Source: Entoloma clypeatum
Lineage: Eukaryota > Basidiomycota > Agaricomycetes > Agaricales > Entolomataceae
NCBI GenBank assembly: GCA_963565915.1
Contig: OY751490.1
Coordinates: 372,001-436,000, forward strand
Length of the DNA stretch: 64,000 nucleotides
Direction: 5' to 3'
Below are positions 36,012 through 62,645 of this stretch, piece by piece. A program made the position numbers and the translations under genes. Below the pieces are notes generated by a model. It was not told where the DNA came from. It saw only the letters and a program-made list of their open reading frames with translations, and searched no databases. Numbering within the stretch: position 1 is the first letter of the stretch; each line of letters begins with the position of its first letter.

Positions 36012-36240
36012 CACATACTCAACCTACACTGTATTGTAATTTACGGTCCAGCGAACGCATACAGTGTATGGTAAATTACGGAAGCAGCGAATTCGCTACA
36101 GCACCAGCGAATTCGCCACGGCGGCGGCGACAGAACGAAATGTGGGCCGGCGACAATGTCAATGCACCCGGCGACATTCAATTTCACCGGCGAATTCTCC
36201 ACGGCGGCGGCGACAGAACGAAATGTGGGCTGGCGACAAC
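36012..36240 (+). repeat. Left inverted end of the KDZ transposon
   Basis: From TCAACCTACACTGTATTG (36019) onward it is nearly identical to the reverse complement of the right end, through AGCAGCGAATTCGCTACAG and the GGCGACAGAACGAAATGTGG block. It contains internal palindromic parts: TACACTGTAT (36025-36034) pairs with ATACAGTGTA (36059-36068), and GTAATTTAC pairs with GTAAATTAC. These could be transposase-binding or hairpin structures. Confidence 0.88.
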
Positions 36241-36500
36241 GTCAATGCACTCGGCGACATTCGATTTCACCGGCAACAATGTCAATACAGCCGCGAAATG
36301 TGGGCCGGCGACAACGTCAATGCACTCGGCGACATTCAATTTCACCGGCGACAACGTCAATACAGCCAGCGACATCCACATCCAAATTCACCGGCGACAA
36401 CTGCAATGCAGCCGGCGACAAAGTCAATGCAGCATCCAAATTCACCGGCGACAAAGTCAATTCACCGGCGACAACGGCAATGCAGCCGGCGACAACATCA
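36100..36500 (+). repeat. Subterminal CCGGCGACAA repeat cluster (left)
   Basis: More than a dozen copies of CCGGCGACA followed by A(A/T)(T/C)GTCAATGCA or related sequence occur in 400 bp, often separated by TTCACCGG. The mirror-image cluster lies at 60580-60900. Clustered short repeats inside the inverted ends are typical transposase-binding candidates. Confidence 0.8.
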
Positions 36501-36572
36501 GACAGAGTCATCTGATACAAACCAGGAGGTGTTTCATGGTAGCCTATTTGACATTGCGAACCCGTAATGTAC

Positions 36573-37385
36573 CTATTTCCCATCGCCCAACCGCCCACCC
36601 GCACCCTGCCCATCTTGTTCCTGCATTGCCTCACGATCTATATTAATAATCCTATCAGCAATGTTGTCGCTGACCATCTCGTCCACCATTCGCCGGGTGT
36701 CAGCTGCCTGGCGCCGGGAAGTGTCGAGCATGTGGATCCTTTGTACCTCAGCATGGTACAGATGGTGTGCAGCATCCTTGTAGCTGATGCCCAGCTGTGC
36801 CTGGAGTGCTTTCACCTCAGCATGAAGTGAGAGAAGCTCTCTGTGGCTCAAACCCTATAGAAAGACATGAGAGCGAAAGACACAACAGGGGACAGTGACG
36901 AACCGGCACAGCAGGTGCTGGGACAGTACCCCGGTTGATAAGGCCTGAAGACAGGGCTTCCATAGAAAGGGGCTGAGGAAGAAGGAGGTCAGCCTAAGAC
37001 CAATGATCGGCGAAACATGTTGAAGACTGCTCGGCGAAACAACCGGTGAAGATTTCTCGGCGAATGACCGGCGAAGATTGCTTGGCAAATAACCGGCGAA
37101 GACTTCTCGGCGAACAAATATCGGCGACGATGCTCATCCGCACTCTTCACGACGTGGATGCAGTGAAGGAAGGTGGTGGTGTGTGGTGTGGGGAACAAAA
37201 AGTGTACTCACCCCTCCTGCGGCGTGCTTAAAATCAAGAGATCGCCGCATCTCTGCCATGTTCAGGGCCAGATCCGTGGCAGGGACAAGGAAATTTGGCA
37301 CCAGATACTCGTGCCCATCCGGGGTGGTACCTATCGTATAGCCCGGCGGCACATCGCGATGGGGTTGGTTGGATGGGGCAGACAT
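36573..37385 (-). CDS. KDZ passenger gene 1: small coiled-coil protein, two exons
   Basis: Exon 1 (37385-37212) starts MSAPSNQPHRDVPPGYTIG and continues YLVPNFLVPATDLALNMAEM. A GTGAGT donor at 37211 and a CTATAG acceptor (36856-36855) give a 357-nt intron in phase 0. Exon 2 (36854-36573) continues GLSHRELLSLHAEVKALQAQL and LGISYKDAAHHLYHAEVQRI, then ends Gly-rich. The protein (about 150 residues) is mostly helical. The intron itself carries repeated CCGGCGAA words. Proteins of this look recur in Agaricomycete genomes, to my recollection, but I know no function. Both exons are open; this gene looks intact. It is divergent to passenger gene 2. Confidence 0.7.
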
Positions 37386-37574
37386 GAGGAGCAGCAGAAA
37401 AGAAGGCGACCGGCGGGAATTAGGTTGCCAATCATCCCAATGATCAGGGCGGAAGTAGTCACGTGTTAGAAAAGTTTGTTTTTTGTTTCGTTTATTCAAC
37501 GGCGAGCGGCGATTACACGCGTTTCCAACTCTACCTACCTACTACCAACGCATTTCCACAACACCGCCCTCAAG
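37386..37574. promoter_or_regulatory. Divergent promoter region between passenger genes 1 and 2
   Basis: A gap of 189 bp separates the ATGs of two divergently arranged genes (37385 minus, 37575 plus). It is AT richer than its surroundings near 37470-37500. No TATA box is convincing on inspection. Confidence 0.45.
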
Positions 37575-38562
37575 ATGTCCGCAACACCCCGCAACATCGA
37601 AGAAATTGTCGCTGACTTCACCCGTTTTGACGCCACGATTCGCAAGGGGATGGCTGATGGGACAATCGTTGCAGGGTTAAAGGGCATGAAGGGAAAGTTG
37701 GTGAGTAACCCCCGGAGCCGTTGTATTGACCCAATTCTAATGTATTTCACGAACAGTTGAAATTGTTCAAGGAAGCGGCGGGGCAACCAGCGGCACCATT
37801 TGCCGGGTTTGCATGGATAAATCAGTTTGTCGTGTCCTGGGCCCACAAGCGCAAAGAGGATGGATTTTTGGATGGTCAACGCCTCGCCCTGGCAACATTC
37901 GACAGCCTGCGGGTACAAGAGGCAACAGCACCAGTGGCTGGGCCAAGCAATGTGCCGACAGCAGCCGTAGGTGGACGTCCGGCACCACGTCCCCTTACGG
38001 CAAAGGCAAAGGCAACGGCGAAGGGACAGGAGGGGAAGGGGACTGACCAACAAACAGGGCAAGGCAGACACGAGGGGTCAGAGGCCATGGAGGTGGACAA
38101 GTCGTCGAAGGAGAAGGCGAGTACGGCTACGGCGACGGCGAGGGAGAAGGAGAAGGAGATAGAAAAGGTGAGGGCGGCAAAGGAGACGAGGACGACGGCG
38201 CAGGAGAAGGAGAAGACGGCAACAGCAACGGCGAAAGAGCCGCCGGCGACAACAACGGCGAAAGACACACCGGCGACATCAACGGCGAAAGACACGCCGG
38301 CGACAAGACCGGCGAAGGAGACACCGGCCACAAGATCGGCGAAGGAGACACCGGCGGCGGCGAAGGAAGGGGCGAAGCAGACGGGGATGGGTAAGGTGGC
38401 GACGGACGCACCGGCGAAGAGGACGATGAGGTCCAAGCCTGCAGTGGCATCAAGCAGTGACGAGGACGACCAACCGGCGCCAGCACGAGGCGAGACGGCA
38501 CAAGGCCACAGGAATTACGCTCGCCGAGCGCCTGTCCACACCGGCGAATACAACGACATCCT

Positions 38563-38653
38563 GTGCGATAGGTGCAAATTCAAGGCGCAGCCATGTGAGA
38601 AGGAGAAGTTTGCTGCGGCGTGTTATGCCTGCTACACGCTGAAGGGGAAATGC
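38563..38653 (+). other. Zn2Cys6-type cysteine cluster in passenger gene 2
   Basis: Six cysteines are spaced 2-6-8-2-6, with basic residues between (CDRCKFK, TLKGKC). This fits the fungal binuclear zinc cluster. The protein context, with an Ala/Thr/Lys-rich N-terminus and a C-terminal coiled coil, fits a DNA-binding protein acting in the nucleus. Confidence 0.7.
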
Positions 38654-38855
38654 CTGACTGATGGCGAGGCGCCTCAGAGGAAGACGAAGAAGACCAAGAT
38701 GGAGGGCCCCAGTGTGTCACGAAAGGCGAAACCGGCGAAGGGGGCAGCACGGCAGAAGGTGACGAAGGTGACTGAATATGTCGAGGTAGAGACAGAGGTG
38801 GACGGTGATGATGAGGACGGAGAAGACAAGAAGGGCGATGTGACCACCTCCCGGC

Positions 38856-39160
38856 TGTTGAAGTTCCACCTGGGCGCTAGCCACAGGCGTACTGAGCAAC
38901 ATAGCTACAGTGGAAGTACTCTACGATACCGCTATGGTCACTTACATGGTTTGGAGAGGTAAGGCTGGTGAGAGCGGTTGAGGCTGGTAAGAGCGATGGA
39001 GCTGGTTAAGAGTCAAGAGACAACTTTTTGATATTGACAGTTTCCTGGTCTTATATACCGTACTACTGTTTGTACCAACCAAATAAGTATGTAATCGAAG
39101 ATATGTAAATGGTCACGTGATGTAATCTAATCTAATCTACGTGATGGAAAAGTTTCAACA
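38856..39160 (-). repeat. Copia 3' LTR (plus-strand left end)
   Basis: 305 bp. It has the same core as the other copia LTRs, including TCTTATATACC, a likely TATA region, on the minus-strand transcript side. Confidence 0.9.
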
Positions 39161-39226
39161 CCCCCCCATATTTAGTACATACTTCTAAATACATTTTTAC
39201 TTTTTCCCATGTAGGTACTCTTTCAT

Positions 39227-42200
39227 CTAGTTTTTAAGTAATCCGAAGTACAGGATAAACTTGCTAAAGAGGACTTTCCCCAGATTCTTAGTTAAAAGGT
39301 CTGCAGGGTTATTCACTCCTTCGATGAATTCGACCGTAATGATGGCTTCGGATACTTTTTCTCTGACGAAGTGGAATCGCACGTCGATGTGCTTGGACCG
39401 CTTTTCAGTTACAGGGTTGGATGCGATAAAGACGGAGCCATTGTTATCTCCATAGATTGGGACTGATCCGATCTGCATCCCAAGTTCGGCAAGCATGCTT
39501 CTAAGCCATGTCACTGCGCGACTGCAATCTGATAGCGCCATGTATTCTGCTTCCGTGGAAGAGAGGGCAATGGTTTTTTGCGCCGATGAAACCCATGTTA
39601 CTGCTCCAGATGCCAGCGATACGAAGTAACCAGTGGTGGACTTTCTGGTGTTTTTGTCTGACGCCCAATCGGAGTCTGTGAATGCGTAGATTCCTTTCCC
39701 AGAATCACCATCGTACATGATCGCGTAATTTTTTGTTGCCCTCAAATACCTGCAAATATCCCTAGCCACTTCTAAATGGCGTTTGGTAGGGTTTGCGGAG
39801 AATTGGGACATTTTGATCACGGCGAAACAAATATCGGGTCTTGTCCCGATCATTAAGTACAATAATGATCCGATGACGGATTGGTACTTGGATCTGAGTT
39901 CCGCATTGGGTTCATCTTCAGACTTCATGGGTTTGTAGCCCGTCGGGAGTGGGGTGTGGGTGGCATTAGATTCGCTCATCCCCATGCGTGTGAGTATTTT
40001 CTCAAGGTAAGGTATGTACTTGATCAATGAAGATCCTCTTCCCATGTTGCCTTATCTGGATCGAAAGAAACTCTTTTGGTTCCCCACCAGGCACGAGGTG
40101 CCCTAGGTCCCTGCATTCCCATGTGGTCATGAAGGCCTTCTTTTTCTCTAGTGTATACTCCCGGTTTGTGCCGAGAAAAGCAGAGTCATCGACATAAATG
40201 ACGGTGATTACAGTTTCCCCTTTGGTACTTGTGTGAATGAAAACTCCCACATCGGAGTGAAGCCGGACAAAGCCGAGCTTTTTCATGGAGGAATTGAGTT
40301 CCCTCCACCAGGCTAATGCGGCCTGCTTGAGTCCATATAGGGCTTTGTATAGTCGGTACACGAGGTGTTCTTTCCCTTTTACTATGTACAGTAACCCTCA
40401 GGCTGTCACATGTAAATTATCTCACGGAGTGTTCCATAGAGGAAGGCTGATGAGACGTCCAAGAGTGTCATGAACCACCCTTCAAGGGCTGTCAATGCCA
40501 GAATCAACCGGACAGTCTCGTACCTCACTACTGGTGAGAAGATCTGATCAAAGTCGATCCCTTCTACCTGTGAGAAGCCTTTTGCGACGAGGCGCGCTTT
40601 CAGACGCCCGTCGGATTTTCCATTGTAAACCCATTTGTTCCTTAGAGCTTTCCTCCCTGCAGGTAGGGGTACTAGCTCCGTGATTACCCCGCGGCGTTTG
40701 AGCATGTCTAGCTCTTTTCGTTCAGCCGCATACCAGTCTTCTTTATTTGGAAGAGGGTATATGTCTTTGTGGGACATTTCAACAATCCCAACCTGAGCTG
40801 ATATTGCTTCTATCCGAAGCTCATTCAGCCATGCCGTCTGACCGCCCAATCTCTGTCTTCAATCTAATTTTTCAAGATCAGAAGCAGGTGTATCTTCCCC
40901 ATAGATACTTCCGGGCATCCTCCGAACTCGTCGTTCCCTGATCGGTCGATCTGGTACTGGCTCGGGCTCCGGAGTGGGTACTCGTGGCTCGTCATCAGGC
41001 TCACTGGCAGGTGGTTCGTCGTCTGATTCGGGTTCATCTTGTTCTGTAGGAACAGGGTCATGAGGTATTTGGTGATGATCATCGTCGTCGTTGTTACCAG
41101 GGATGAGATCCTCAAACTCATCTGCCGGCTCTGGGTTTTCCATTTCTGGATCGTTTTCTGGCAAAGGATCGATATGGCATCTAGGGTATTTGCTTTCATC
41201 AAAGATGGCTTTCCCACCCATGAAAATCGTGTTGGTCTCAGGATCCATGAAGCGGTATCCCTTGACCCCTGGTTTTGATCCGAGATAAATCATCAATCGA
41301 GATCTTGATTCCAGGGAGTTTCTGCGTTTTTCTTTTGGGATATATACATATGCTTGGCATCCGAAAACTCTGACGCTGGACATGTCGGGGATCTCATTGG
41401 TCACCCTAAAATAAGGGGTATTCCATTCGAGACGCTGCATGGGCGTTCTGTTGTAGAGAAACGCTGCATGTTCCAAACAGAATTCCCACCACATAGGGGG
41501 TAAGCACGCGTCGAAGCGCAAGGCCTGAGATTTCTCCCACAGGGTTCGATTTATCCGTTCTGCTCTACCGTTCTGCTGGTGCTGATACGGGAGCGTGACG
41601 TCGATCAGAACTCCATGATCGGCAAGTTCATCCTTGTATTCATCGAATTCTCCGCCTCCATCAACTCACCACTTTTTAGGAGTAGCAGCGAATTGATTCT
41701 GGATCATTGCAAGAAATTGTCTCAGTGCTGTAATGGCACCAGATTTCTTCCTAAGCAAAACGACCCAGACATGGGATGAAAAATCATCCAAAAAGGTGAG
41801 GAAGTATTTGTACTTGTGATATGATGCCGTGGATATCTGCTTTAGATCCGAATGAATTAAATCAAAAGGTTTGACTGCCCTTGTTATGGAATTGGAATAT
41901 GATTGATTTGGCATTTTCCCTTTGAGGCACCCTGTGCAGCTTTCCTGTGATTTCTCACGTACTAACGTTTTAGGTACCCCTTTGGTACTGGTGGGAATCT
42001 TTCCGAGTGCCTTGTCATTCGGATGGCCAAGACATTTGTGCCAGATTTCAACCATGACTTCACTAGAAATTGCATGAATTTGATCGTGGCGAATCTCAGT
42101 GTCAAGCCAGTAAATGGTTTGTCCAATAATGTGGGGCGAGAACTGTATTTTGTTCAGCCCTTTGGAGATGTTGATTTCTCCACGAGTCCCGTCTACTTTG

Positions 42201-42376
42201 TAACCATGGTTAAGAAAGACGCCTAATGATAGTAAGCGTGTATCCATGTCCGGGATGTAGAACACCGGTCTGAGAAGATGGGTTTTAACTTCCCCATTTA
42301 GGGTGTGCCGTACTGGAATGGCCCCAACTCCGAGAATTTCCAGTTGCTTCCCTTTGCAGCTGTTTGGACAAATCAC
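39227..42376 (-). pseudogene. pol: Copia pol: integrase, RT and RNase H (frameshifted)
   Basis: On the minus strand the integrase begins after the protease with a zinc finger HKCLGHPN...CTGCLKGK (about 42040-41930), core Asp residues in DLIHSDLKQI (about 41855) and FLDDFSSHVWVV, and the GGGEF region near 41645. RT follows with NKWVYNGKSDGRLKARLVAKG (about 40640) and YVDDSAFLG (about 40190), then RNase H (FTDSDWASDKNTRKSTTG, SSTEAEYMALSD) to a stop at 39227. A one-base shift at 42376 separates it from gag-protease. Stops or shifts occur near 41664, 40855, 40407 and 40020. The TGA at 40408-40406 corresponds to CGA at 25543 in the sister copy. Confidence 0.9.
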
Positions 42377-43950
42377 TTGACCCCGAGGGGTTTGTAGTAT
42401 GCGAAGTCCTTAAACTCATGGGTGAAGTGTAATGAGGCGCCAGAATCTAAGATCCATTGTGCGCGTTCTTTTCCCTTACAATGTGTGCAGTTGGCAAAAT
42501 GTTTTATAAATTTTTTGTGTAGATCGTTACTAAAGTGATCTACACATTCTGCACTGCTACTGGCTAATATATTATATGTCTGTAAACAGGCATTGTTAGC
42601 GTTCCTCAATTGATAAGGTTTGAAGGAATAAGTTGACGAACCGTCGAGTTCAATCAATTCATCAGGTCCCATGCGCTCTGATTGATGGTCAATGTCCATC
42701 ATCCTGAGGGAGTCATCCAAAGGCGGAGTAACTCGACGCTGCTTGGATGGTCTTTCATCTTCTTCTGGGATAATCATATCCAGAATCCGAAGATTTGACC
42801 CTGAGGGACGAGCACCAATGCTCCACGCGAGTTTCCTGACATGGTCATTCTTTTTCCACGCAGACGGCTTGCCCGAAGGAAGCCCGGTGTACTGGGATGG
42901 AGGCGGGTTCATGCGTTGCAGGAGTGACTGCATCCTTTGGGAGTCTGGCTGGGCGGTACTCATCATTTTTCCGCGCCCAGTGACAGTCGTGAAGGAAGGT
43001 GCCGGAAGAGGAGAGAAGTGAATGGCGGGAGCAACAAACTCAACCGTTTCTTCCACATGGTCGGACGTGTTGTCCGCATTGTTGGTGCTCTTCTTCTGAT
43101 TGCGCCAGCGTTCTTTTCCCTTCTTCTTTTCAGAAGCGGTACTAGGGTCGGTCGAGTTAGGCTGCTCGTCAGCATCGTTTTGCGAGGTACTCGGCTTTTG
43201 CTGCTTTTCCCATTTGGGGTCTTGCCCCTTTCGCTTTGTCCCGGAGATTTTCCGGGCCTGCTCGTTGGACGTACGAGTGGACCCAATCGAATACTTGCGC
43301 CGGTACTCTGAGATGATGCTATCCGCGACGGCTTTGTACGTGAAGTCGTCGGCGTCATAGACCTGGAAGAGGGCGGTGGAGAGCGACGACCAGGCGTCGG
43401 GAATGGCACTTGCCAGGATCATGGCCTGCATCAGGTCAGGGACATCGAAATTCGATTCGCTGAGACGGGCGAAGAGTGCTCCGAGGCATTCTATTTCAGG
43501 GACCGGGTCACGACCTGACAGCTTGAAGGAAGCTGCCGCTTTGAAGTCGCCGAAGATGACGGCTGGGGTTACTTTGGAATAGGCATCCTTCAGGGTCGTC
43601 CATGCATCCAGAGCCAAGTTGCTATCCTTGATGTGGCGTCTGATCGCCTCAGAGACTTTCAGTCGGATTGACCCGAGGGCCTTATCGTCGTCTCTGATCC
43701 AACTCTTTTCTTCCTTGCGGAAGCCAGGCTGATCGACCGTGGCGACCAGCACAGGGGGAGCACCAGCGGTGGTGCCAGGAGTGGAGATCGTGGTAGTGAA
43801 ATCGGCGATATCGGGGCGGGGGATGTCGCCAGAGACAAGGCGCCAGACTCCTTGATGGAGGAGGTAGGACTTCATTTTTTTGGCCCAGCTTTGGTAGTCG
43901 ATGCCGTCAAAGGCGGAGATGGTGTCAAGAGCAGAGCGAGAGGTAGACAT
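42373..43950 (-). CDS. gag: Copia Gag-protease
   Basis: The ORF starts at ATG 43950 (MSTSRSALDTISAFDGIDYQSWAKKM), the usual start of a copia Gag (UBN2-like domain, KVTPAVIFGDFKAAASFKLSG further on). It continues through a Lys/Asn/Ser-rich linker to the aspartic protease signature WILDSGASLHFTH near the end. I see no CCHC knuckle, although there is a short HCKGKERAQ stretch before the protease. About 525 residues, open to 42373, where a single-base shift breaks continuity with integrase. Confidence 0.85.
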   Translation of the reverse strand: MSTSRSALDTISAFDGIDYQSWAKKMKSYLLHQGVWRLVSGDIPRPDIADFTTTISTPGTTAGAPPVLVATVDQPGFRKEEKSWIRDDDKALGSIRLKVSEAIRRHIKDSNLALDAWTTLKDAYSKVTPAVIFGDFKAAASFKLSGRDPVPEIECLGALFARLSESNFDVPDLMQAMILASAIPDAWSSLSTALFQVYDADDFTYKAVADSIISEYRRKYSIGSTRTSNEQARKISGTKRKGQDPKWEKQQKPSTSQNDADEQPNSTDPSTASEKKKGKERWRNQKKSTNNADNTSDHVEETVEFVAPAIHFSPLPAPSFTTVTGRGKMMSTAQPDSQRMQSLLQRMNPPPSQYTGLPSGKPSAWKKNDHVRKLAWSIGARPSGSNLRILDMIIPEEDERPSKQRRVTPPLDDSLRMMDIDHQSERMGPDELIELDGSSTYSFKPYQLRNANNACLQTYNILASSSAECVDHFSNDLHKKFIKHFANCTHCKGKERAQWILDSGASLHFTHEFKDFAYYKPLGVK

Positions 43951-44310
43951 TTTTAATGAATCTAGAAAAGGGTTTCCCAATCAGTGATATGTTTTTTAAT
44001 GAATATGATTTGAGAAAACAAGTAAATGATTCCTCATGACATATTCCCTTCAGGAATAGCGGTCGTGGGAAAAACCCTTTTTATATGTCAGGAGCGTATG
44101 AGGTACGATCGGATTTTCCACAAGATGTGTACTAAGCCAATCCCCTTTAGGGACGCTCCATGACAGGTACTTTGTCGTAATGACATTTTCCCAGGTTCAT
44201 GTGTGAAGAAGTATGACTCAGAGACCAGATCTTTTGATCGGTTCTTTGCCAACCAGGGTAGAGTGGGCAGGTACTTGCTGTGGCCAGCGTTCCCAAGTCC
44301 CTCTGCTATC

Positions 44311-44324
44311 CGGGGCCCATAACC
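44311..44324 (-). other. Copia primer-binding site, half-molecule initiator tRNA-Met type
   Basis: Directly after the 5' LTR the minus strand reads GGTTATGGGCCCCG. Its complement, CGGGGCCCATAACC, matches the anticodon stem-loop of eukaryotic initiator tRNA-Met around CAT. Some copia elements (for example Drosophila copia) are known to prime from an internally cleaved initiator tRNA, so this is the likely primer. Confidence 0.65.
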
Positions 44325-44632
44325 TGTTGAAGTTCCACCTGGGCGCTAGCCACAGGCGTACTGAGCAACATAGCTACAGTGGAAGTACTCTATGATACCG
44401 CTATGGTCACTTACATGGTTTGGAGAGGTAAGGCTGGTGAGAGCGGTTGAGGCTGGTAAGAGCGATGGAGCTGGTTAAGAGTCAAGAGACAACTTGTTGA
44501 TATTGACAGTTTCCTGGTCTTATATACCATACTACTGTTTGTACCAACCAAATAAGTATGTAATCAAAGATGTCTAAGGTCACGTGATATAATCTAATCT
44601 AATCTAATCTACATGATGGAAAAGTTTCAACA
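44325..44632 (-). repeat. Copia 5' LTR (plus-strand right end)
   Basis: 308 bp. It differs from the partner LTR by several substitutions and an extra AATCT unit near 44600. It is flanked by CCGGC. Confidence 0.92.
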
Positions 44633-46502
44633 CCGGCGACGAACCACTGGCGATGGCGGGGACGACCGTTCGCCGGCGGCGCGTTCGACGCTGCCCCCCG
44701 TCCTCACGGATGCGCGTGAGTAATGATACTGAATCATTTCTTGTACATCATCTCACGCAGTGTGGCCTGGAAGTGGAGCTATACCTGGTGGACTGGTTCC
44801 GCCAGCAGGGAACCATCTCACAGCGGGCATACCATACACAGAGTGGCGCCCTGTTCAAGCTCGAAGGGCAGATTAACAAGCTCACGAACCGCTTCAACCG
44901 GATCCTCGAGGGGGCAAATGCACAGCTGGCGATGCAGGAGGAGAACGCGTACTCCCGCCTGTTGTACATGGAGGACACACTCAAGGGGTTGAATGTCAGG
45001 TTGACGGACATCGAGAACTACCTGGGTTTCGACCGCTGTCCCGCCCACAACAACCGCGAGTATTGGCGTCCCTACCTTCCCCCACCGCCAGAAGTCAACG
45101 TAGAGCGCCTCTGGCCTGCAGACCCTGAGGGGATGGACCCGGAGCACTACAAGATGGGGCGGTGGCAGCCGGACGAGGGTGCATGGCAGGATTCGCCCCT
45201 GGGACGGCCATCGACGATGAGTGACCCGCCGTCATCGACCCCTCGCGCCTCGTGCCGACCACCCTTCGCCGGATCCCTCGCCGAAGGTTCTGGGACACCT
45301 GGCCCATCTCGGCGAGTGCCATTCGCCAGGTCCTTCGCTGATTCGCCGGTCAACCCCTACGCCGCTTCCTTCGCCGTTGGGCATTCGCCGGTTAGTCGCC
45401 GGGATGGCTCACCCTCGCCGTCGCCCCCAGCCACTGTCGCTGCCACCACCACTACCACCACTGCCGCTGCCACCGTCACCGCCGCCTCCCACCCCGTCAC
45501 ACACCCCGTCGTTGCCCCTCCTGCAGTCAACCTTATCACGCCGACACCAACGACATCCCAGGAGACGGCGCAAGGCACGGTGCAACTCATCCCCCCCCAC
45601 CTGTGAGTCCTATGGCTGTCGTGCCAGAGGAGGAATCTGTGATGGAAGACGATGTGCCCGACACCACCCACACTCATCCGGTGACCCTCGCCGCCTTGCC
45701 TGCCGATGCGCTTCGGCAAAGTCCTCGGCTAAGCGACCACTCATGTTTGCCATCTGCATCGGGCAGTACAGCGTCATCTGAGGGGAAACGTGGACGAAAG
45801 CGCAAGGGTGGGGATGACAGCAGCGCGACTGGGGGAAAGCGGTCTCGCGCGTGAACACGACCGGCGAATCTTTTATTTTTTATTCACATATCCATTTTTC
45901 ATTTCGCTTTCATTTGTTCTACTGTTTTCTTATTGCTTGTCATGTAAGTATTGTATGAAAGGCAATCCTACTTTTGTCGTTTGGAACGGCGAAGGCCATT
46001 TGAGTGATCTGAATCAGTTCTTAGCATGGTGACGATTCAAAATCAGAAACATGAATATCCTACCATTTGGTGTAATCAATGCTGGATCAATCACTGAGTC
46101 GTTTGCTCGAGTCAACATCAAAGCTCGTACGGCAGAGGCTGGGACGCTATACTGTGGGTCGCCATCCAGTGGGCCATTGATCGGTGCCATAACCATCATG
46201 CCCTGTTGAATGAGTTCATTCATTTGCATTTGACCTACAGTCACATATCCGTCACTGGCCACACCCTCGGTAAAACGTTCTTCGGCGAAAGGTCCTTCGG
46301 CGACATCACCGGCGAATGTTTCTTCGGCGACATTCCTGACGGCGACATCACCGGCGAACGCTTCTTCGGTGTTCGTGACGGCGAATGGATCATCGGCGAA
46401 GGTGCCCTCGGCGACAATACGGCAAACACGGCGAATTTCGCCAGTGGTTATATGACTGCTCGCCATCCCCTCACTTCCACTGGGCCATTCTGTATCAGAC
46501 GC

Positions 46503-47797: not shown

Positions 47798-47799
47798 TC

Positions 47800-47817
47800 T
47801 GGAGCCCACCGCGAGGG
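47800..47817 (+). other. tRNA-type primer-binding site
   Basis: TGGAGCCCACCGCGAGGG starts with TGG, 2 nt after the LTR, as expected for pairing with a tRNA 3' CCA end. I cannot name the tRNA with confidence. It contrasts with the self-priming gypsy families in the same window. Confidence 0.6.
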
Positions 47818-53985: not shown

Positions 53986-54235
53986 GGGTGGTGGGACGTG
54001 GAATTATTCAAGAAACATCCTTGATGGAACCCATTGGACATATATTGCTTTAGTGATTTTCGTGAACACATGTTTAATACTTTGATCATTGATGATGTAC
54101 AAAAATGATAGAAGACAAGCTTTTGCGGTGACAAATGAACACGCGGAGATCATTGTGGACATGTGTTCACCATGCGCCATCGCGTTTGAACCTGAACCAA
54201 TCCTCTCTCGTGAACCAATCCTCCCCAACCTTTCA
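53986..54235. promoter_or_regulatory. Divergent promoter between passenger gene 3 and the transposase
   Basis: A gap of 250 bp separates the minus-strand ATG (53985) from the plus-strand ATG (54236). The second divergent pair of the transposon is arranged like the first (37386-37574), so the element may express its genes from two bidirectional promoters. No specific box is called. Confidence 0.4.
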
Positions 54236-57200
54236 ATGTCGAGCCGACGATCAAAGCGACAGAAGAGAATTCATGTATATGATGAGGATGAGGATTATCA
54301 GGTGGTTACAGTAAAGAAGGTGACCGTACCGACTCGACAAGGACTAATTACCCAAGATGTCGATGTCCCACTATACCCTCCCACCAATTCCAATCTACAA
54401 CCAGAAGATGAGGCAGGTCCAAGCACTGAGCCTGTCAGTGTTGCGATCCCTCCAGATGGCCCGTTTGGTGATGCTGGATGGGAAGGATTGGCGAGCGATG
54501 ATATGATTCCAAATAGAAACAAGGTACAAGCTAATAAATGATCTCGAGTATAATTACTAACAGGCATGGTAAAGCAACACTACTGGATGCAAGAATTTGT
54601 CCATCATGCTGATTCCTTGTTGACTGCATTACTGTCCCGAGAAGCTTTGCCGGCTGGTGGATACTGCCAGACATGCACTGGTGAGAAAAGAGCTGTTTGG
54701 AGGTGCATAGATTGTACCATAACACCTTTACTCTGTCGTGGGTGCATGCGCCATGCTCATCGACATGACCCGTTGCACCGCATCGAGTGTTGGACTGGTA
54801 GTTTCTTTCGCCGTGCCGGCTTGTGGGAGGTCGGTACATACATTCTTGTTCCGCATCATCTGGACACAGACCTCTGCCCATCATTGAAATGGCAAGTCAC
54901 ATTCTTGGAAGAACTTCAGATCCAGCAGGATGAGAAGGAACAGTACCGACTCACGGTGACACCCTTCGCCGGCGAGAATGCCTTCGCCGGTGACCCTGCA
55001 TTCGCCTGTGACACAACCTTCGCCGATGACCCTACATTCGCCAGTGACACTAACTGCGCCGATGACAATAGATTCGCCGGTGACACCACATTCGCCGATG
55101 ACGATACATTCACCAGTGACACTACATTCGCCAGTCCTACTGCCGATGGGTTGGACGATGACGATACTGACTACCCGAGTACTGAGCTTGGCAAGGATGA
55201 CGATGAGGACGGCAACCTTATGCCATGCCACGGATATCTCGCCGAGAATCCCCTGAGGGCGGCGCCCTTCGCCGACACCTCAACAGCCGCCGAGGCAAAC
55301 ACTAGTTCCATCCCCGCCATACCCCAGCATGACTCATTGCTCAACCACTACGTGCGTGTTATTCACCCTAATGGGATCCATCATCTTGCGCTGGTTACCT
55401 GTCAGTGCCAAGGCCAGGGGAGTGTTCACGGCGACCTGATGCACTGTCGCCTGGTGCCAACAACCTTCATCCGGTACAGAACTCTGTTCTCTGTTGCTGT
55501 TCTGGATGATTTCCGCCTTTCGAACCTCGAGTGCAAGGCCACGGCATACCAATACTTTCAAAAGCTTCGTCGACTCACATTTCCCATGGCACCTCTGAAG
55601 GCACCCAACCTCTATCAAGAACTGCTTCAGCTGTCGCGCATCTGGCGCTGGTTGAAGAAGAAGAAGTGGGCTGGCCATGGCCACAGAACGGCGACCGGCG
55701 AACAGACGGCACCCGCCAAATTTGGCAACTTCTGTCCAGCATGTCCCCAACCAGGAATCAATCTCCCAGAACACTGGAAAGAGGATCCACGACGGTAGGT
55801 GCATCATCCCGATATCGCGTTCCTTGGTGAATCAAATGCACAGGTGGGTGTACAATCGGTCTTTTGTCGCCGACGGCAACTTCAAGGCCGACCATGTTTG
55901 GCAAAAAACGTCCGGCGAGGTGTGGCTGGATGAGGGTGCTGGTATGATGTCGAAGCGTGAAGACTATCTCGGATTCCTGAAGACCGCCGTAGAGCGCCTC
56001 ACAGTATGAAAGTTTTGGCATTGTTATACAGCCCAGAGATGCTGAAAAATTGATTTCTAGAAGGCACCATGTGAGAACCAGTTTCGTGCCATTGAGCTCG
56101 CTATGCTTGGCTCCAAGGCATGCGACATCACTGGCATCGTCGCCGTTGCCTGTGCACGGCATGGGTGTTTTGTCCCCAACGCGATTGCCAATCTGTTCAA
56201 GGGTGAGGGCCAAAAAAATGCTGACTGGGTTCTTCTTATGGGTATCAAGTATGGCAATGTGGATGTGGAACAGATCGTCATGATCATCTACGGCATCGTC
56301 TGTCAATACTTTGTCTACCTTTATGACCGCATTGGTCACCTCCTCCCCCCTGGCCTGGTGCTTGACTGGGCTATCAGCCTCTTTCATGTACATGGCACAA
56401 GGAAGAATGTTTTTTCCGTTATGCCACGTCCTTCATTCCTGGTGCCGCCGTCACCGCCGGTGAAATCCTCGAGACTCTGTGGTCAAATCTGAATGTCATT
56501 ACAACAACAGTACGGACGGCCACATTGGCAAATAGGGCAGAAACCATTGATGACCATGCAACAGACTCAAATCACAAGAAGATGTTGAACATGGGTAAGT
56601 ATTCCACAATCAGCCCTCTCGCCGATGATTGTTTCCCTGACAATTTCTTCGCCGACATTCTTTCGCTGATCCTTCCTTTTGCCAGTCCTTCCTTTTGCCG
56701 GTCCTTCCTTTCACCGGTGACCATGTTTTCGCCGGTAAACCTTCGCCGGAACATTTTCGCCGGTCCTTCCTTTCACTGGTCACCACCCTTTCGCCGACCA
56801 TCCCTTCGCCGGTACCTTCGCCGTTTCGCCGGTCTCAGTACCTGTCTTGTGCCGGCGACATGTCCAGGCGAGATCAATGTCTCATGCGGCAACGGACTAC
56901 TTCGTCAAGATGACAACGGCAATCACCCATGATCATGTGAAAAACTGGGAGACAGAAATTAAAGCTGCTGAAGCACGTTGCCTCGCCGATGTCACGGCAA
57001 TGGATATTCTATGCACTCGTACAACCGATCCCGAGGAGCCTGTCGACATAATGCCAAGCGAGGTGCACACCCCGGTGAAAGAATGGATAAGAATGGCCCT
57101 CAATATCGAGGAGAAACAGTGCGTGTTTTATGTGTCACTCACTCTTAAGCCTTCTCATTGCTGGGCAGGATTGAGTTAGAGGACCGTCTCCGGCATTGGA

Positions 57201-58203
57201 AAAAGAACCCTCGGCCTGAAGATTCAAAGCAGATTGAACACCTTCAAGATAATCTCACATCCCAGCTGACTGTGCTCGATACATTGCAACAGCAGGTTGG
57301 GGTGCTGGGTATAGTGGCACCAGATACATCAACATCAGATGATCCGACAGCCTTTGACGATCTTGATGATGATGAGCATGAAGGCAAGAGCAATGACGAC
57401 AGCGACATCCCCGGCCACTATGATGTCGCCGGCCACCTCCCACATGAACACCGGCCACTCGTCTTACCTTCCACAGCATCTGGTGGCAATCAAGCTCACT
57501 GTGCTGTAGAAGTGGCCGAGCGAACAAGGCAGGCCACACGACATCTCAATGCCCTTCGCACGATCATCGCCAACAAATCCTTTCACTACTCCCATGTCAT
57601 CTGAGTAGCACCCCGGAAAGGTGTCAAAACCCGAGCTCGAGCTGCGATCATCAAGCTCAATCAGCAGATTTCATTCCATTCTCGAGTATATACACGATGC
57701 AGGGCAGCCCTCAGCCGGCTGCAAGCTTCGCCGGACATCATGGCGAGATTTCGGGTTTTAAGCCGAGACGACCTGAAGTGCAGCACGGCCGTTCTGGATC
57801 CCAACATCCAGGGGTCAACGACTCTGCGCCTGTCCTGGATATGGCAGATGCAACTGAGTGTCAATCATACGTCGCTGGCGGCCGTGCTAGAATGTGAGTC
57901 GCCGGGTATTGTCGCCATGGATCTTCTGATTGTCCCTTAGTCCAACGTGTTCACTGGTTACATGCACGAGCACGAAGCCACCGCTGGGAGGAGGAAGTCA
58001 CCCTGGTCCAATATGAGATGGGTTGGACGACCAGATATTTTGTCCATCAACGGGACATTTGGGACGGCCGGCGACAAGTTGCCGCTTCGCCGGCACTCAT
58101 GGCACACGCAGCAAGAAAGGCAGCGATGTGGCACAACCTTGCGGCAGATGCTGAAGATGAATTTGTGGGTACTACAAGGTCATATGTGCGGATAATTGAG
58201 TAG
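54236..58203 (+). pseudogene. KDZ transposase (CxC2 type), seven exons, inactivated
   Basis: The probable start is MSSRRSKRQKRIHVYDEDED (54236). Introns fit at 54524-54574, 55795-55843, 56004-56060, 56595-56838, 57119-57168 and 57894-57940. The N-terminal cysteine cluster (CQTCTGEKRAVWRCIDC, then CRGCMRHAHRHDPLHRIECW) is the KDZ-associated CxC2 domain. The catalytic part has FVADGNFKADH (first Asp, about 55870), then YGIVCQY (about 56290) where the family typically has YDIxCQ, and GEILETLW...N (Glu, about 56460). The C-terminal RARSHRWEEEVTLVQYEM is also typical. Damage: one base missing at 56396 in the HVHGHK motif, TGA at 57602-57604 probably from CGA, and the Asp-to-Gly change. It would cut and insert the element's DNA in the nucleus; this copy should be dead. 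Confidence 0.87.
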
Positions 58204-58243: not shown

Positions 58244-60494
58244 ATGGATGAAACGTGTAATGATGTGACACATTGTGATCTGTCACATTTACCGCCATCT
58301 TCTTCTCATCCACACTCTATTGCAACTGCAATGCCCTCTTCCTCCACCTCAACTTCTTCTATGACCGGTCATCCTCATCCTGATCCAAACACAGTAGTTG
58401 CATACTGTGAGTCACGCTTCCGTGCCGCTTTGCTCGGCATTCAGCAGGCGCCAGCAAATCAGCAAGGGTGGATGAAGGATGTACTCACCTCGGAATTGGT
58501 AAGGTGATGTGCCGATTAAACAATCTGTATACTAACATATCGTAGGCCGTGTCGATGCGCTTTGTTGGCCTGGCGGCAAGTGCTGGAGTGCCAATAGACA
58601 TTCCAATCATCACTCACACACTGTCGTTCACCAATCTGGGTGGATATGGAAATGACGCCCATCCCCATTTTCCTTGGTCAGCCGTGCTTGATGGGAGCTC
58701 CCACCCGACGCAAGAATTTGGCATTGTGCCGCACTACCACCTCGACTGGTGGAACCACCCAGAGCACCCCCAGCAGATATTAGATGACAACACGCTCACC
58801 CAGTGTCTCAAAGTCCACCACGGCGTCCTTGGTCACCCGCCAGGTGGCGAGAATGTCGCCGGTCCATTCGCCGGTCCATTCACCGGTCACTCTCTCTTGC
58901 CGACTATCCATCAGTTCCCCCTCCCCATATCTCTCTGAACTCTCAGGCAGCGGCGGGGTACCGCGCCGTGGCTCTTGACGCCTCTCACCAACTCCAAGCG
59001 GTGGCGAACAGGCTTCATGCCCAGGAAACAGCGTCGGCGAATGCGTTGCACTTAGCCATCCGTCGTGCTAGTGGTTTCAACATGCTCTATGAGCACGCCA
59101 TGACCCTTGAATCCCTGGAGCCCGCGAGGGGACACATTGCAGTACCAGCATCTCACCCGTCGGCGACCATCGGCAAATGCGCCGTTTCGCCAGCGTCGAC
59201 TCCCCAACCCTCGTCGTCACGGCTGGTGCGCAAGTCAACCACCGCCCAAGCGCAACGGAAAAGTAGGCCAAAGATCAAGAAAGTCAGCCTCCAGGATCTG
59301 GCCACCATGATCCAGGCCCTCAAGTGGACCTGGGGCATTGATCTCGAAGTTGATGACATCGGGAAGCTGGTGAGAGCAGCAGAAAACCAATACCAGCTTC
59401 CGCATTCTGGATATGACGAGTCCCTTGCCGACGGCGCTTTTGCCGGTAACGACTCTGATGGCCCAGGAGATGCCCCCTTCTCAGACATGATTGGTCGCCA
59501 TTCCGCTGCCTCGCCATCTCTCATCACCGACCTCGGCACCCTCGATATTCCGCACCATTTCAGAGAGTATCCCCTTCGCCGAGCCCATACGGCCACGCCG
59601 GCGGACAACCTGCCACATGGGGCAGGTGACCACTTCGCCGCTGCTCTTCTTCCTGCCCCTTCCCTCACTGCTCTTGATGCTGAGTGTGACTCACCGATTT
59701 TCACTCCAAACCCCAGATCACCTGTAACTCAAGTTCCGGCCACCTCCACATCGCCTGTTGCCGATTACCAGGAGGTCGTCGACATTATCATGGGCGATAT
59801 CAGTGATGAACAGGCGACCTCTGGCGATATTCCTCTCCAGCTTGTCATGCAGACACTGGAGGATATGAGTGACACCGATTCGCCGGCCCACCCTTCGCCG
59901 AGCCACCCTTTGCCATCCCAACCTTCACCGACTTCGCCGACTTCACCCTCTTCGCTATCTTCCATGTCTTCGCCGTCCCAGCCTTCGCCAAACACCGTTG
60001 CGCCGACGCGGCATTTGCTGTCCATTGACTCCCCAGACACTCCTTCGGCTGCAATCTATCATCAGACTCTGGACGTTGTTATGAACGTCCTAGAGGAGGC
60101 GGTGAGTGACATAGAGGATGACCAGAGCGGGCCCTCACCGTCAACACTATTTGACAATGCACTGGCAGCTCTTGAGGACTCCGATGAAGCTGACGACGAG
60201 GCCGACGGCAGGCACGAAACTGACGGCGACCCTGACAGCGATGGTGACAGCAGTGGCGTCACAAACGCACCTACTGCCGCCAACGTCGCCAGCGCACTTG
60301 AAGGTGTCGACTCCGATGTCTCTGATAGTGAGCCAACTGGACCCCTCCCTCCCATTCGTTCGCCGGGGCTCTTTGCCCATGCCCCCGGGGCTCAATTCCA
60401 ACGCCGCCCTTGGACCGCTGAAGATTTAGCTCATGTGCGTGTCCCTGGCAGTTCGAGTGATACTGGGTCATCGGAGAGCGAGGGTGCAGAGTGA
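58244..60494 (+). CDS. KDZ passenger gene 4: acidic Ser/Pro-rich protein of unknown function
   Basis: ATG 58244 opens exon 1 (MDETCNDVTHCDLSHL); a 47-nt intron (58499-58545, GTAAGG...TAG, phase 0) leads to exon 2 (AVSMRFVGLAASAGVPIDIP, HFPWSAVLDGSSHPTQEFGI). The frame must change before 58947; a phase-0 intron 58855-58946 with a weak donor GTCGCC and acceptor CTCAG would do it, otherwise there is a frameshift. Exon 3 is about 515 codons: a helical start (SHQLQAVANRLHAQETASAN), a basic segment (KSRPKIKKVSLQDLATMIQALKW), then acidic Ser/Pro/Asp-rich disordered sequence. It follows the transposase by 40 bp in the same orientation. No family function is known to me. Confidence 0.65.
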
Positions 60495-60559
60495 TATGGC
60501 ATAGCGGCATACCATTGTTATTCCACTATCATACTATACAGATGTCTACGCTTTTTCTC

Positions 60560-61009
60560 TACAATAAAATGAGCCTTGGTTGTCACCGGCCATGGCACAT
60601 TGTCCTTGTCGCCGGCTGCATTGAGTTTGTTGCCGGCCACATTGTCCTTGTCGCCGGCTGCATTGACTGTCGCCGGACCACATTTCATTTTGTCGCCGGC
60701 TGCATTGACTGTCGCTGGCTGCACTGATTGACTGTCGCCGGCTGCACTGAAGTAGTCACCGGCCACATTGGGTTTGTAGCCGGCTGCATTGACTGTCGCC
60801 GGACCACATTTCATTCTGTCGCCGCCCGCCGTGGCGAATTCGCCGGTGAAATTGAATGTCGCTGGGTGCATTGACATTGTCGCCGGCCCACATTTCGTTC
60901 TGTCGCCGCCTGCCGTGGCGAATTCGCTGGTGCTGTAGCGAATTCGCTGCTTCCGTAATTTACCATACACTGTATGCGTTCGCTGGACCGTATATTACAA
61001 TACAGTGTA
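60560..61009 (-). repeat. Right inverted end and subterminal repeat cluster of the KDZ transposon
   Basis: The segment 60795-61009 is the reverse complement of 36025-36240 with few mismatches. Inward of it are more than ten GTCGCCGG(C/A)(T/C) words with CTGCATTGACTG spacing (60600-60800). The outer 12 bp of the end lie beyond the Tc1-like insertion, at 62626-62637. Confidence 0.87.
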
Positions 61010-62623
61010 CAGTGCCTCACAAAACTGATTCAATGTTTGTTGCTTTTTGAATACCTTCAAGATAACTCTGCAAAGAATACCAATTGAATTAAACCTTTGG
61101 TATATAATTGAAAGCCCTACTTCAGGGCTTTCGGAATATAAAAAAATCATATGATTTAGACCAGAATCCGATATGATTAAATTAAATCAGCAACTCATTG
61201 AATCAGTTTTGTGAGTACCTATGGCAATTATCAGAATCAAATGCTTCACTGGTTGTATGGTAACCAGTTGTCATGACTTACTGATGGAACTTGACTAGAA
61301 CCCTGATGGGTTGTCAAGGAAAGTTGTATAAGAAGAATCCAACCTCAACAGCCTCCATAATTAATCATGCGCCCTATCTCCTCTTCCCACAAGGAAAACA
61401 TTCTTTCTCTGGCCTCCAATGGTCACTCCACTCGTCATATTGCCTCTAACCTGGGTGTCAGCCAACCAACTGTCTCCAGAGTGCTTCAGAATCTTCTTCC
61501 TCATCGCAATCTCTCTTCTGGTGGTCGTCCATCCAAGCTTTCTCCCACCAACACACAAAACATACTTTCACAAATCACCTCAGGGAGAGCCTCCAATGCT
61601 GTGCAGGCTACCAAACACATCAACACTGTCATCTCCAATCCTGTCTCCCCAGAAACTGTGAGAAGGGTTCTCAGAAAACATGAATTCAAGGCTGTAACAA
61701 AGAAGAAAAGACCTTTCTTAAAGGCCATATATCGGAAGAGGCGGTTGGCATTTGCTATGAAGCACAGGGAATGGACAGTGGAGGACTGGAAGAGGGTCAT
61801 TTGGTCAGATGAGACCAAAATCAATAGGTTTGGGTCAGATGGCAAGGAATGGGTCTGGAAAAAGAAGGGTGAGGGGCTTATTGAAAGAGAGGTTCAGGGC
61901 ACAGTCAAGTTTGGGGGAGGAAATATTATGGTTTGGGGTTGTATGGGTTGGGAAGGTGTGGGAAGACTTGTAGAGATTGAGGGGAGGATGGATGCTGATC
62001 AGTATGTGTCCATTTTGGAGGACAATTTGCTGCCCAGCATGGAGGAGAGTGGAATCTCTGAAGAGGAGATCATTTTTCAGCAGGACAATGACCCCAAGCA
62101 CACCTCCAATAAGGCCAAAAAATGGATGGACAGCAAGAATATTGCTCTGCTGGATTGGCCTGCACAGTCCCCAGACCTCAATCCTATTGAACACCTCTGG
62201 GTTCATATTAAAAGGAAGTTGAATGAATATCCAACACCACCCAAGGGAGTCTGGGAGATTTGGGACAGAGCAGCAGAGGTGTGGAATAATATAGAGCCAG
62301 AAGTGTGTCAAAACCTGATAGAAAGTATGCCAAGAAGGGTAGAGGCAGTAATCAAAGCTAAGGGGGGTAATACCAAGTACTAAAGTATAAAATACTGTAT
62401 TTATTGTACATACTCACAAAACTAATTCAATGAGTCCCTGGAGTAATTTGATCATATATTGATCATTTCTTATGGGAATTACATAATTATTGCAGATTCC
62501 GAGAGCCCTGAAGCAGGGCTTTTAACCAGGTACCAATACCGTCTTTTGATTGGCATTATTTGCAAAGTTATTTTGAAGGTATTCACAAAGTAGCAAACAT
62601 TGAATCAGTTTTGTGAGGCACTG
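61010..62623 (+). mobile_element. Tc1/mariner-type transposon, intact
   Basis: The terminal inverted repeats start CAGTGCCTCACAAAACTGAT and extend about 75 bp with some mismatches. TA is duplicated at 61008-61009 and 62624-62625. Inner copies of the CTCACAAAACTGATTCAATG word lie inverted at about 61197-61218 and 62411-62431, giving each end a two-site structure. The single transposase gene is intact, so the element may be active. It inserted at a TA inside the right end of the KDZ transposon. Confidence 0.95.
61367..62383 (+). CDS. Tc1-like DD34E transposase
   Basis: 338 residues from ATG 61367 with no intron or stop. The N-terminus is a helix-turn-helix DNA-binding region (HKENILSLASNGHSTRHIAS, then LGVSQPTVSRVL). 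The catalytic triad is visible: Asp in IWSDETKINRF (about residue 147), Asp in FQQDNDPKHTS (about residue 240), and Glu in SPDLNPIEHLW, exactly 34 residues after the second Asp (DD34E). The usual GRPR-like hinge is represented by GGRPSKL near residue 53. The protein excises and reinserts the element at TA sites in nuclear DNA. Length and motifs are those of a functional Tc1-family transposase. Confidence 0.96.
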   Translation: MRPISSSHKENILSLASNGHSTRHIASNLGVSQPTVSRVLQNLLPHRNLSSGGRPSKLSPTNTQNILSQITSGRASNAVQATKHINTVISNPVSPETVRRVLRKHEFKAVTKKKRPFLKAIYRKRRLAFAMKHREWTVEDWKRVIWSDETKINRFGSDGKEWVWKKKGEGLIEREVQGTVKFGGGNIMVWGCMGWEGVGRLVEIEGRMDADQYVSILEDNLLPSMEESGISEEEIIFQQDNDPKHTSNKAKKWMDSKNIALLDWPAQSPDLNPIEHLWVHIKRKLNEYPTPPKGVWEIWDRAAEVWNNIEPEVCQNLIESMPRRVEAVIKAKGGNTKY

Positions 62624-62645
62624 TAGGTTGACTACCTGACCGTAC

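What the first reader, a model, noticed from the sequence alone, without database searches (positions are those of the whole stretch)
36012..62637. A multi-gene KDZ transposon with defined ends carries four passenger genes
The ends are fixed independently by an 8-bp TSD inside a recognisable LTR, by inverted ends of about 220 bp, and by mirrored subterminal repeat clusters. Inside are a KDZ transposase and four other spliced genes, arranged as two divergent pairs plus one trailing gene. After removing three later insertions it is about 13.3 kb. A cut-and-paste element carrying several conserved, non-transposase genes is reminiscent of cargo elements such as Starships but uses a KDZ enzyme. Whether the five-gene set moves as a unit elsewhere is not shown here.
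Basis: partly seen in the sequence, partly recalled or inferred. Interest (0 to 1): 0.92.

Follow-up and report, generated by a model that had tools for sequence, protein, structure and literature searches.

The report
Five-gene KDZ transposon, dead copy
A fungal "jumping gene" here carries not just its own moving enzyme but four other genes that travel with it as a fixed set in many copies and in distant relatives, so they are probably part of its machinery rather than stray cargo.

Summary
The element spans 36012-62638. Its target duplication is 7 bp (ACCGTAC), not 8, and it ends 5'-CA...TG-3'. The open question, whether the five genes move together, is answered: yes. In the same 60-Mb genome, 12 loci (window included) carry all five genes, all 12 in the same order and orientation. 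Of 12 end pairs read, 7 have an exact 7-bp duplication, each different. One 4.8-kb copy with the same ends shows no hit of the five genes. Two other KDZ families carry all five at 28-55% identity (KDZ catalytic piece 72-76%), so the "passengers" are a conserved module, not Starship-like cargo. A TET-bearing KDZ locus shares two of them (G1, G2). G1 has a Zn2Cys6-type cysteine pattern. Each family is peppered with a largely private CG-rich motif, in exons as much as elsewhere, recalling the VANC/VANDAL anti-silencing system of Arabidopsis. That link is unproven: an LTR element in the window shows a similar pattern. The window copy is dead: LTR elements sit in G1 and G2, a Tc1 element in the right end, and the KDZ and G5 frames are broken.

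The parts
36012..62638 (.). Whole KDZ element (family A copy, relic), about 13.3 kb of element plus three later insertions; 5'-CACATACTCAACC ... GGTTGACTACCTG-3'
36005..36011 (.). Left 7-bp target site duplication ACCGTAC
62639..62645 (.). Right 7-bp target site duplication ACCGTAC
36012..36259 (+). Left terminal inverted repeat, CACATA tip; in 8 other fetched copies this tip lies on the G5 side, so tips and interior are swapped here
60775..62638 (-). Right terminal inverted repeat, CAGGTAG tip (60775-61009 plus 62624-62638), split by the Tc1-type insertion
36615..37390 (-). Gm1, small two-exon gene of unknown function (exon 2 at 36615-36854; exon 1 placed approximately through copy C14:2341065)
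37560..45880 (+). G1, gene with a Zn2Cys6-type cysteine pattern C-x2-C-x6-C-x8-C-x2-C-x6-C (read in the other copies); interrupted by the Copia LTR element (limits approximate)
46035..53700 (-). G2, multi-exon gene; last exon interrupted by the second LTR element (conserved exon at 52501-52824; outer limits approximate)
54190..58140 (+). KDZ transposase gene, CxC2 domain (in frame 54554-55795) and KDZ domain (55854-56572, frame break); limits approximate
58325..60494 (+). G5, trailing gene (698-aa main exon in an intact copy; one frame break here)
38856..44632 (-). Later insertion: Copia-type LTR retrotransposon, 5-bp TSD CCGGC
46503..52394 (+). Later insertion: LTR element with 100% identical LTRs, 4-bp TSD ACGC; carries its own dispersed motif CTCGCGA
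61010..62623 (+). Later insertion: Tc1-type transposon (DDE_3, HTH_Tnp_Tc3_2) at TA

Best explanation
This is a dead copy of a KDZ-superfamily DNA transposon, closest to Kyakuja by its 7-bp TSD and 5'-CA..TG-3' ends, in a fungal genome, probably an agaricomycete (inferred; the organism was not identified). Long copies are mostly 13-14 kb and carry a fixed module of five genes: the transposase (CxC2 + KDZ) and four element-encoded accessory proteins. Shown: the module occurs as a unit between two distinguishable ends in many places, with 7-bp duplications; at least one copy without these genes keeps the ends and has its own duplication; the module recurs in two other KDZ families. Inferred: cut-and-paste movement by the KDZ enzyme acting on the ends. 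Inferred: the accessory proteins serve the element itself. G1, with a Zn2Cys6-type pattern, most likely binds DNA and acts in control of expression, anti-silencing or assembly on the element. The roles of Gm1, G2 and G5 are not known; a regulatory or transposition-cofactor role is the most likely.
For: Twelve loci with all five genes, all in the order Gm1- G1+ G2- KDZ+ G5+ or its exact reverse; 8 of the 12 have both ends among the scored end hits. TSDs: 7 of 12 family-A pairs exact at 7 bp, one 6/7, one 5/7, three without. Copy C1:135609-140424 with TSD ATGGCTT and no hit of the five gene searches. Families B and C with all five genes and tips CACATAG/CAGGTAG. Close homologues within 15 kb of a KDZ hit: Gm1 14 of 28, G1 17 of 26, G2 18 of 27, G5 20 of 38, random means 1.4-2.0; distant homologues g2 6 of 8, g5 7 of 9, gm1 2 of 6, means 0.3-0.6. 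G1 cysteine spacing kept in family A, in one family B copy, in family C and in a TET-bearing locus. All 6 PDB chains matched by the G1 profile are, by name, Zn2Cys6 regulators. G2 C exon, A against B: dN 0.42, dS 2.24.
Against: One genome only; movement was not observed. Three of 12 end pairs lack a TSD. PDB E-values for G1 are weak (0.34-7.1), Pfam PF00172 is below its cut-off, and both structure models are poor (mean pLDDT 56 and 55; no useful Foldseek match). One family B copy has lost a G1 cysteine. dN/dS among family-A copies is 0.47-0.75 for pieces of G1, G2 and G5, and 3.76 for Gm1 exon 2, where dS is only 0.006; the A-B dS is near saturation and dS for Gm1 between A and C could not be estimated. 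At the thresholds used, 50 of 119 clusters hold KDZ hits alone. A G2 exon found no homologue in the large protein database. Two of the 12 loci span 27 and 30 kb, so further insertions or rearrangements are likely there.
Confidence: 0.87

Rival explanations
1. Self-marking (VANC-like) reading: an element protein, most likely the Zn-cluster protein G1, binds the short, largely family-specific motif spread over its own element and keeps it unsilenced or brings it into the transposition complex; motif and protein diverge together between families.
For: Family A: TTCGCCG 72, 46 and 74 times in three copies against shuffle means of 1.2-2.0; B ACCGGCA 35 and 42 times in two loci against 1.3 and 2.3; C GCGGCAA 27 against 1.1 (60 shuffles each). 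TTCGCCG is 3.4-5.3/kb in A and at most 0.11 in B, C, the TET-bearing locus and the host stretch; GCGGCAA is 2.1/kb in C and at most 0.3 elsewhere. In A the density is alike in approximate exons (5.0/kb) and outside them (5.9/kb), so it is a DNA-level feature. Spaced pairs of the A motif: 718 genome-wide against 13 for the reversed pattern. All four KDZ motifs hold CGG or CCG, the triplet that Zn2Cys6 proteins read (recalled). Parallel with VANC targets: tandem motif arrays varying between related TEs, with a variable protein beside a conserved transposase (PMC5735166: abstract, outline and one results section seen).
Against: One of six control stretches, the LTR element at 46503-52394, has a dispersed motif as strong as those of families B and C (CTCGCGA 22 against 0.8), although no gene of this kind was recognised in it. 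ACCGGCA is not private to B: 2.0-3.1/kb there, but 0.98 in C and 0.4-0.7 in A, against 0.03 in the host stretch, and its spaced pairs are only 129 against 54 in the control. The TET-bearing locus has a weak motif (CCGACGG 18 against 1.4, shuffle maximum 7). The base-contacting lysines of GAL4 (recalled) are not evidently kept in G1. No binding was tested.
Confidence: 0.18
2. The dispersed motifs are neutral: products of slippage and tandem duplication in the element, or of a host process acting on several TE classes, with no binding protein behind them.
For: In family A the commonest neighbouring motif pairs are direct repeats at variable spacing. An unrelated LTR element in the same window shows the same kind of pattern.
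Against: The motif is spread over 13 of 14 1-kb bins in each of two copies and is kept by the gene-less copy C1:135609-140424, where 11 spaced pairs are listed. Equal density in exons and elsewhere is not what slippage in coding repeats alone would give (inference).
Confidence: 0.62
3. Starship-like cargo element: a transposon that carries host-derived, variable passenger genes.
Against: The gene set is the same in 12 of 12 complete loci and in two other KDZ families. No accessory gene reaches a Pfam cut-off that would name a host function. The enzyme is KDZ, not a tyrosine recombinase.
Confidence: 0.03
4. Short element whose ends happen to flank unrelated neighbouring genes.
For: A 4.8-kb copy with the same ends and no hit of the five genes exists.
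Against: Twelve loci with the same five genes in the same order, in 8 of which both ends were also among the scored end hits.
Confidence: 0.01

Closest known systems
Kyakuja (KDZ superfamily), Kyakuja-1_LB and Kyakuja-2_LB of Laccaria bicolor (Kojima 2025, PMC12730594; parts 1-3 of 7 plus find passages seen)
   Same: KDZ transposase, 7-bp TSD, 5'-CA..TG-3' termini, further gene beside the transposase. A TET-bearing KDZ locus in this genome shares G1 and, weakly, G2 with this family.
   Different: Kyakuja of that paper is reported to have no TIRs and to carry TET/JBP; this family has TIRs of about 165-235 bp, no TET match in the 12 five-gene loci, and Gm1 plus G5 instead.
KDZ1, KDZ2, KDZ3 of Cryptococcus neoformans (PMC12810828, find passages seen)
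   Same: About 9-11 kb, long TIRs (139-241 bp), KDZ transposase with a CxC domain; insertions into a reporter gene observed.
   Different: 8-bp (KDZ1) or 4-8-bp TSDs, CxC1 instead of CxC2; accessory genes are not described in the passages seen.
KDZ elements of Pleurotus ostreatus and Marasmius oreades (PMC7641404 and PMC8290104, find passages seen)
   Same: In Pleurotus, intact KDZ transposases are all preceded by a CxC2 region, as here.
   Different: No further genes of the elements appear in the passages seen; the Marasmius TIR motifs are in a supplement that was not seen.
VANDAL/VANC of Arabidopsis (Hosaka 2017, PMC5735166; abstract, outline and one section seen)
   Same: Short motifs forming tandem arrays that vary between related TEs, beside a fast-evolving element gene and a conserved transposase.
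   Different: A plant element in which VANC binding and hypomethylation were measured; here nothing is measured and the candidate protein is of another type (Zn-cluster).
Starships
   Same: Large fungal element with several genes.
   Different: Tyrosine-recombinase captain and variable cargo against KDZ enzyme and a fixed five-gene module.

Membership tests
KDZ superfamily (PF18758) | KDZ transposase domain above the curated cut-off | tested here: met
KDZ superfamily (PF18758) | Associated cysteine cluster (CxC2, PF18803) | tested here: met
   E 3.9e-16
Kyakuja | 7-bp target site duplication | tested here: met
   7 of 12 family-A pairs exact at 7 bp, none at 8 bp
Kyakuja | 5'-CA..TG-3' termini | tested here: met
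Kyakuja | No terminal inverted repeats (as reported for the Laccaria families) | tested here: not met
   TIRs of about 165-235 bp
Kyakuja | Transposase grouping with known Kyakuja in a tree | not testable with these tools
   reference sequences not held
TET-bearing (TET+) KDZ element | TET/JBP gene inside the element | tested here: not met
   11 PF12851 hits in the genome, none in the 12 five-gene loci; one lies 2.7 kb from an 79-residue G5 fragment at C8:3819020
Zisupton | 8-bp target site duplication | tested here: not met
Starship | Variable cargo | tested here: not met
   gene set the same in 12 of 12 complete loci
Starship | Tyrosine-recombinase captain gene | not tested
   not searched for; the enzyme found is KDZ
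Zn2Cys6 binuclear cluster proteins (PF00172), for G1 | C-x2-C-x6-C-x5-12-C-x2-C-x6-8-C spacing (recalled) | tested here: met
   family A, family B copy at C2:1788 kb, family C and TET-bearing locus; the family B copy at C9 lost one Cys by a small deletion
Zn2Cys6 binuclear cluster proteins (PF00172), for G1 | Match above the Pfam cut-off, or solved-structure match | tested here: inconclusive
   2 of 11 members match PF00172 (best E 0.0017); the family C piece scored 18.2 bits against a cut-off of 21; 6 of 6 PDB matches are Zn2Cys6 regulators by name but E 0.34-7.1
VANC-like sequence-specific anti-silencing | Element protein binds the element's motif and removes methylation | not testable with these tools
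   only motif statistics

The most novel reading that the evidence does not exclude
Fungal KDZ transposons have an independently evolved self-recognition system. An element-encoded zinc-cluster protein (G1) reads a short CGG-core motif that the element has multiplied over its whole length, in exons as well as elsewhere. Motif and protein diverge together between families, giving each family its own anti-silencing or transposition control. TET-less lineages keep Gm1 and G5 where TET-bearing lineages carry a demethylating enzyme.
Probability: 0.16. Interest if true: 0.85.

Novelty: new variant of a known kind. Interest (0 to 1): 0.58.

Why it matters
KDZ elements of mushrooms are known mainly for their transposase and for captured TET genes. 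Here three families of a TET-less KDZ lineage share a five-gene module with recognisable ends and TSDs, and two of those genes are shared with a TET-bearing KDZ locus. That turns a "hypothetical gene" background into defined parts of a transposon and gives a short list to test. If the motifs are read by an element protein, it would be a second, independent case of sequence-specific self-protection by a DNA transposon.

Tried and rejected
Per-codon conservation scan to draw exons: no clear signal among near-neutral copies; replaced by open frames shared between copies and by distant families. HMG-box identity for part of G2 (an idea recalled from the 2014 KDZ paper, which is not held): no Pfam, PDB or fold match; the model shows three long helices at low confidence. 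Zn-cluster fold for G1: model too poor. Homologues outside this genome: G5 has 6 metagenome proteins at 27-35% identity among 7,993 scored candidates, a G2 exon none; Gm1 and G1 were not searched there. Spread among species stays open. TET as a passenger of this family: rejected. Tandem or circular origin for copy C2:676905 from its odd flank: only 13 bp match a tip and the rest of the flank has no similarity; left open. Papers: four full-text searches bearing on KDZ elements or element-borne zinc-cluster proteins (listings, with passages of six listed papers opened) showed no description of this gene set or of these motifs; supplements and the 2014 KDZ/TET paper could not be read, so its list of extra genes was not compared.
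Full report
WHAT WAS CHECKED. The ends stand: inverted repeats 36025-36259 and 61009-60775 are 94.5% identical over 237 columns, and the flanks are the two halves of one LTR whose relative at about 4178 in the window is unfilled with a single copy of the target. The target duplication is 7 bp, ACCGTAC. All 19 right-type tips read elsewhere are CAGGTAGTCAAC inward, so the G at 62638 is part of the element. The element thus has two distinguishable tips, CACATA and CAGGTAG, and begins 5'-CA and ends TG-3'.

DOES THE SET MOVE AS A UNIT? The window is C9:372001-436000 of a 60.08-Mb genome. The 249-bp end has 46 matches there, with 40 of 169 candidates scored, so this is a lower bound. The right-hand 8.2 kb of the interior matches 20 other loci at 83-97%, with 21 of 94 candidates scored. 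Searches with pieces of each gene give, after merging rows by hand, 28 close Gm1 places, 26 G1, 27 G2 and 38 G5, and KDZ has 118 matches. Clustering by position gives 12 loci with all five genes, the window included, and all 12 have the order Gm1- G1+ G2- KDZ+ G5+ or its exact reverse; one further cluster (C2:4905433) holds all five only as two copies together. Two of the 12 (C2:1398933, C6:4729291) span 27 and 30 kb. Eight of the 12 have both ends among the scored end hits. Where both tips of a family-A copy were read, 7 of 12 pairs have an exact 7-bp duplication, each different; one has 6/7, one 5/7, and three (C6:35597, C14:179800, C2:676905) none. A 4.8-kb copy at C1:135609-140424 has both tips, the duplication ATGGCTT and no hit in the five gene searches (the G5 search scored 64 of 88 candidates); its interior was not fetched. 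A 5.4-kb copy at C5:354854 keeps pieces of G5, G1 and Gm1 and has an exact duplication. Ten copies aligned are 85-98% alike, mean 95%.

ARE THE FOUR GENES MACHINERY OR CARGO? Two other KDZ families carry all five. Family B (C9:3440-3471 kb, an inverted pair; also C2:1774-1788 kb and C9:4654-4659 kb in part, 92-94% alike) keeps the family-A order on its more complete arm, CAGG tip first: Gm1- G1+ G2-, then KDZ+ and G5+. Family C (C6:1647876-1668846) has all five with the blocks rearranged and the same two tips, TSD 6/7. Protein identities to family A: KDZ catalytic piece 72-76%, G2 C exon 51-55%, Gm1 exon 2 46-48%, G1 cysteine region 33-42%, G5 28-32%. So the accessory genes evolve much faster than the transposase but are kept. 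Distant homologues lie near KDZ hits above chance: g2 6 of 8, g5 7 of 9, gm1 2 of 6, random means 0.3-0.6; the maxima of 2,000 random draws were 4, 3 and 3, so the gm1 value alone is not beyond chance. G2 C exon between A and B has dN 0.42 and dS 2.24; among A copies the ratios are 0.47-0.75 for pieces of G1, G2 and G5 and 3.76 for Gm1 exon 2 on a dS of 0.006.

RELATION TO TET-BEARING KDZ. The genome has 11 TET/JBP matches, none in the 12 five-gene loci, two within 15 kb of a KDZ hit; one other lies 2.7 kb from a 79-residue G5 fragment. One TET-KDZ locus, C2:5103-5121 kb, holds a KDZ 31-44% identical over its main pieces, a G1-type cysteine motif (E 7.3e-5) and weak matches to G2 (0.0015 and 0.0069), but no Gm1 or G5 match below 0.1. 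Its G1-type gene recurs at seven places in all (my grouping of 12 matches, one of the 12 being family C itself); four of the seven lie within 20 kb of a TET match, and two of these at almost the same 5.5-kb spacing. Whether TET and KDZ lie within one element there was not shown.

WHAT THE ACCESSORY PROTEINS ARE. No Pfam match reaches its cut-off for the pieces of Gm1, G1, G2 or G5 tried. G1 has C-x2-C-x6-C-x8-C-x2-C-x6-C in family A, in the family B copy at C2:1788 kb, in family C and in the TET-bearing locus; the family B copy at C9 has lost one cysteine. The profile of this region finds six PDB chains, by name all Zn2Cys6 regulators (LAC9, GAL4 three times, the ethanol regulon factor, PPR1), with E-values of 0.34-7.1. 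Two of 11 members match PF00172 (best E 0.0017). The predicted models of G1 and of part of G2 are too poor to use (mean pLDDT 56 and 55).

DISPERSED MOTIFS. Family A copies hold TTCGCCG 72, 46 and 74 times in the three copies counted, against shuffle means of 1.2-2.0. Family B holds ACCGGCA 35 and 42 times in two loci against 1.3 and 2.3, family C GCGGCAA 27 against 1.1, the TET-bearing locus CCGACGG 18 against 1.4. They are largely, not wholly, family-specific: TTCGCCG is at most 0.11/kb outside A, GCGGCAA at most 0.3/kb outside C, but ACCGGCA reaches 0.98/kb in C and 0.4-0.7 in A beside 2.0-3.1 in B. In copy C14:2341065 the density is 5.0 per kb in exons (approximate) and 5.9 elsewhere, and 13 of 14 1-kb bins hold the motif, so the peptide repeats (FAG and the like) look like a by-product. 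Spaced pairs of the A motif number 718 in the genome against 13 for the reversed control (only the first 100 or so places are listed; most of these lie in family-A copies or at places with the same tips, but not every one was checked); for the B motif 129 against 54. Against a special meaning: of six control stretches one, the LTR element at 46503-52394, has a dispersed motif as strong as those of B and C.

THE WINDOW COPY. It is a relic. A Copia element sits in G1 and a young LTR element (identical LTRs) in the last exon of G2, both placed through copy C14:2341065; a Tc1-type element splits the right end; KDZ and G5 each have a frame break. Its tips are swapped relative to the interior: the CACATA tip lies on the Gm1 side, whereas in C14a, C12, C2b, C11a, C13, C6, C14b and C5s it lies on the G5 side. 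Two other single ends (C9:702682 and C2:1715381) are swapped too. Recombination between the inverted ends is the simplest reading.

VERDICT. A real, multi-copy, multi-gene KDZ transposon family with a conserved module; known superfamily, new TET-less variant. The cargo analogy fails; the self-recognition reading is open and testable.

Noticed in passing
46503-52394: LTR element with 100% identical 1,295-bp LTRs, a 598-aa frame without a Pfam match, and a dispersed motif CTCGCGA/TCGCGA spread over its whole length.
   Followed up: partly
36012-62638; C9:702682 and C2:1715381 in the genome: Copies in which the tips are swapped relative to the genes, as if the interior had flipped by recombination between the inverted ends.
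   Followed up: partly
L017:480-505 (C2:676880-676905): The CAGG tip of copy C2:676905 directly abuts 13 bp identical to the complement of the CACATA tip, with no further similarity and no TSD.
   Followed up: partly
L049-L050 (C9:3440-3459 kb): Two family B elements lie as a large palindrome, 99.7% identical over at least 3.66 kb of the arms.
   Followed up: no
C8:3819020-3821988 in the genome: A TET/JBP match lies next to a 79-residue piece of G5.
   Followed up: no
31391-34501: A dense block of direct and inverted repeats just left of the element, 75-89% alike.
   Followed up: no
25525-27082: A 1.56-kb stretch 89% identical to part of the Copia insertion, in reverse orientation.
   Followed up: no
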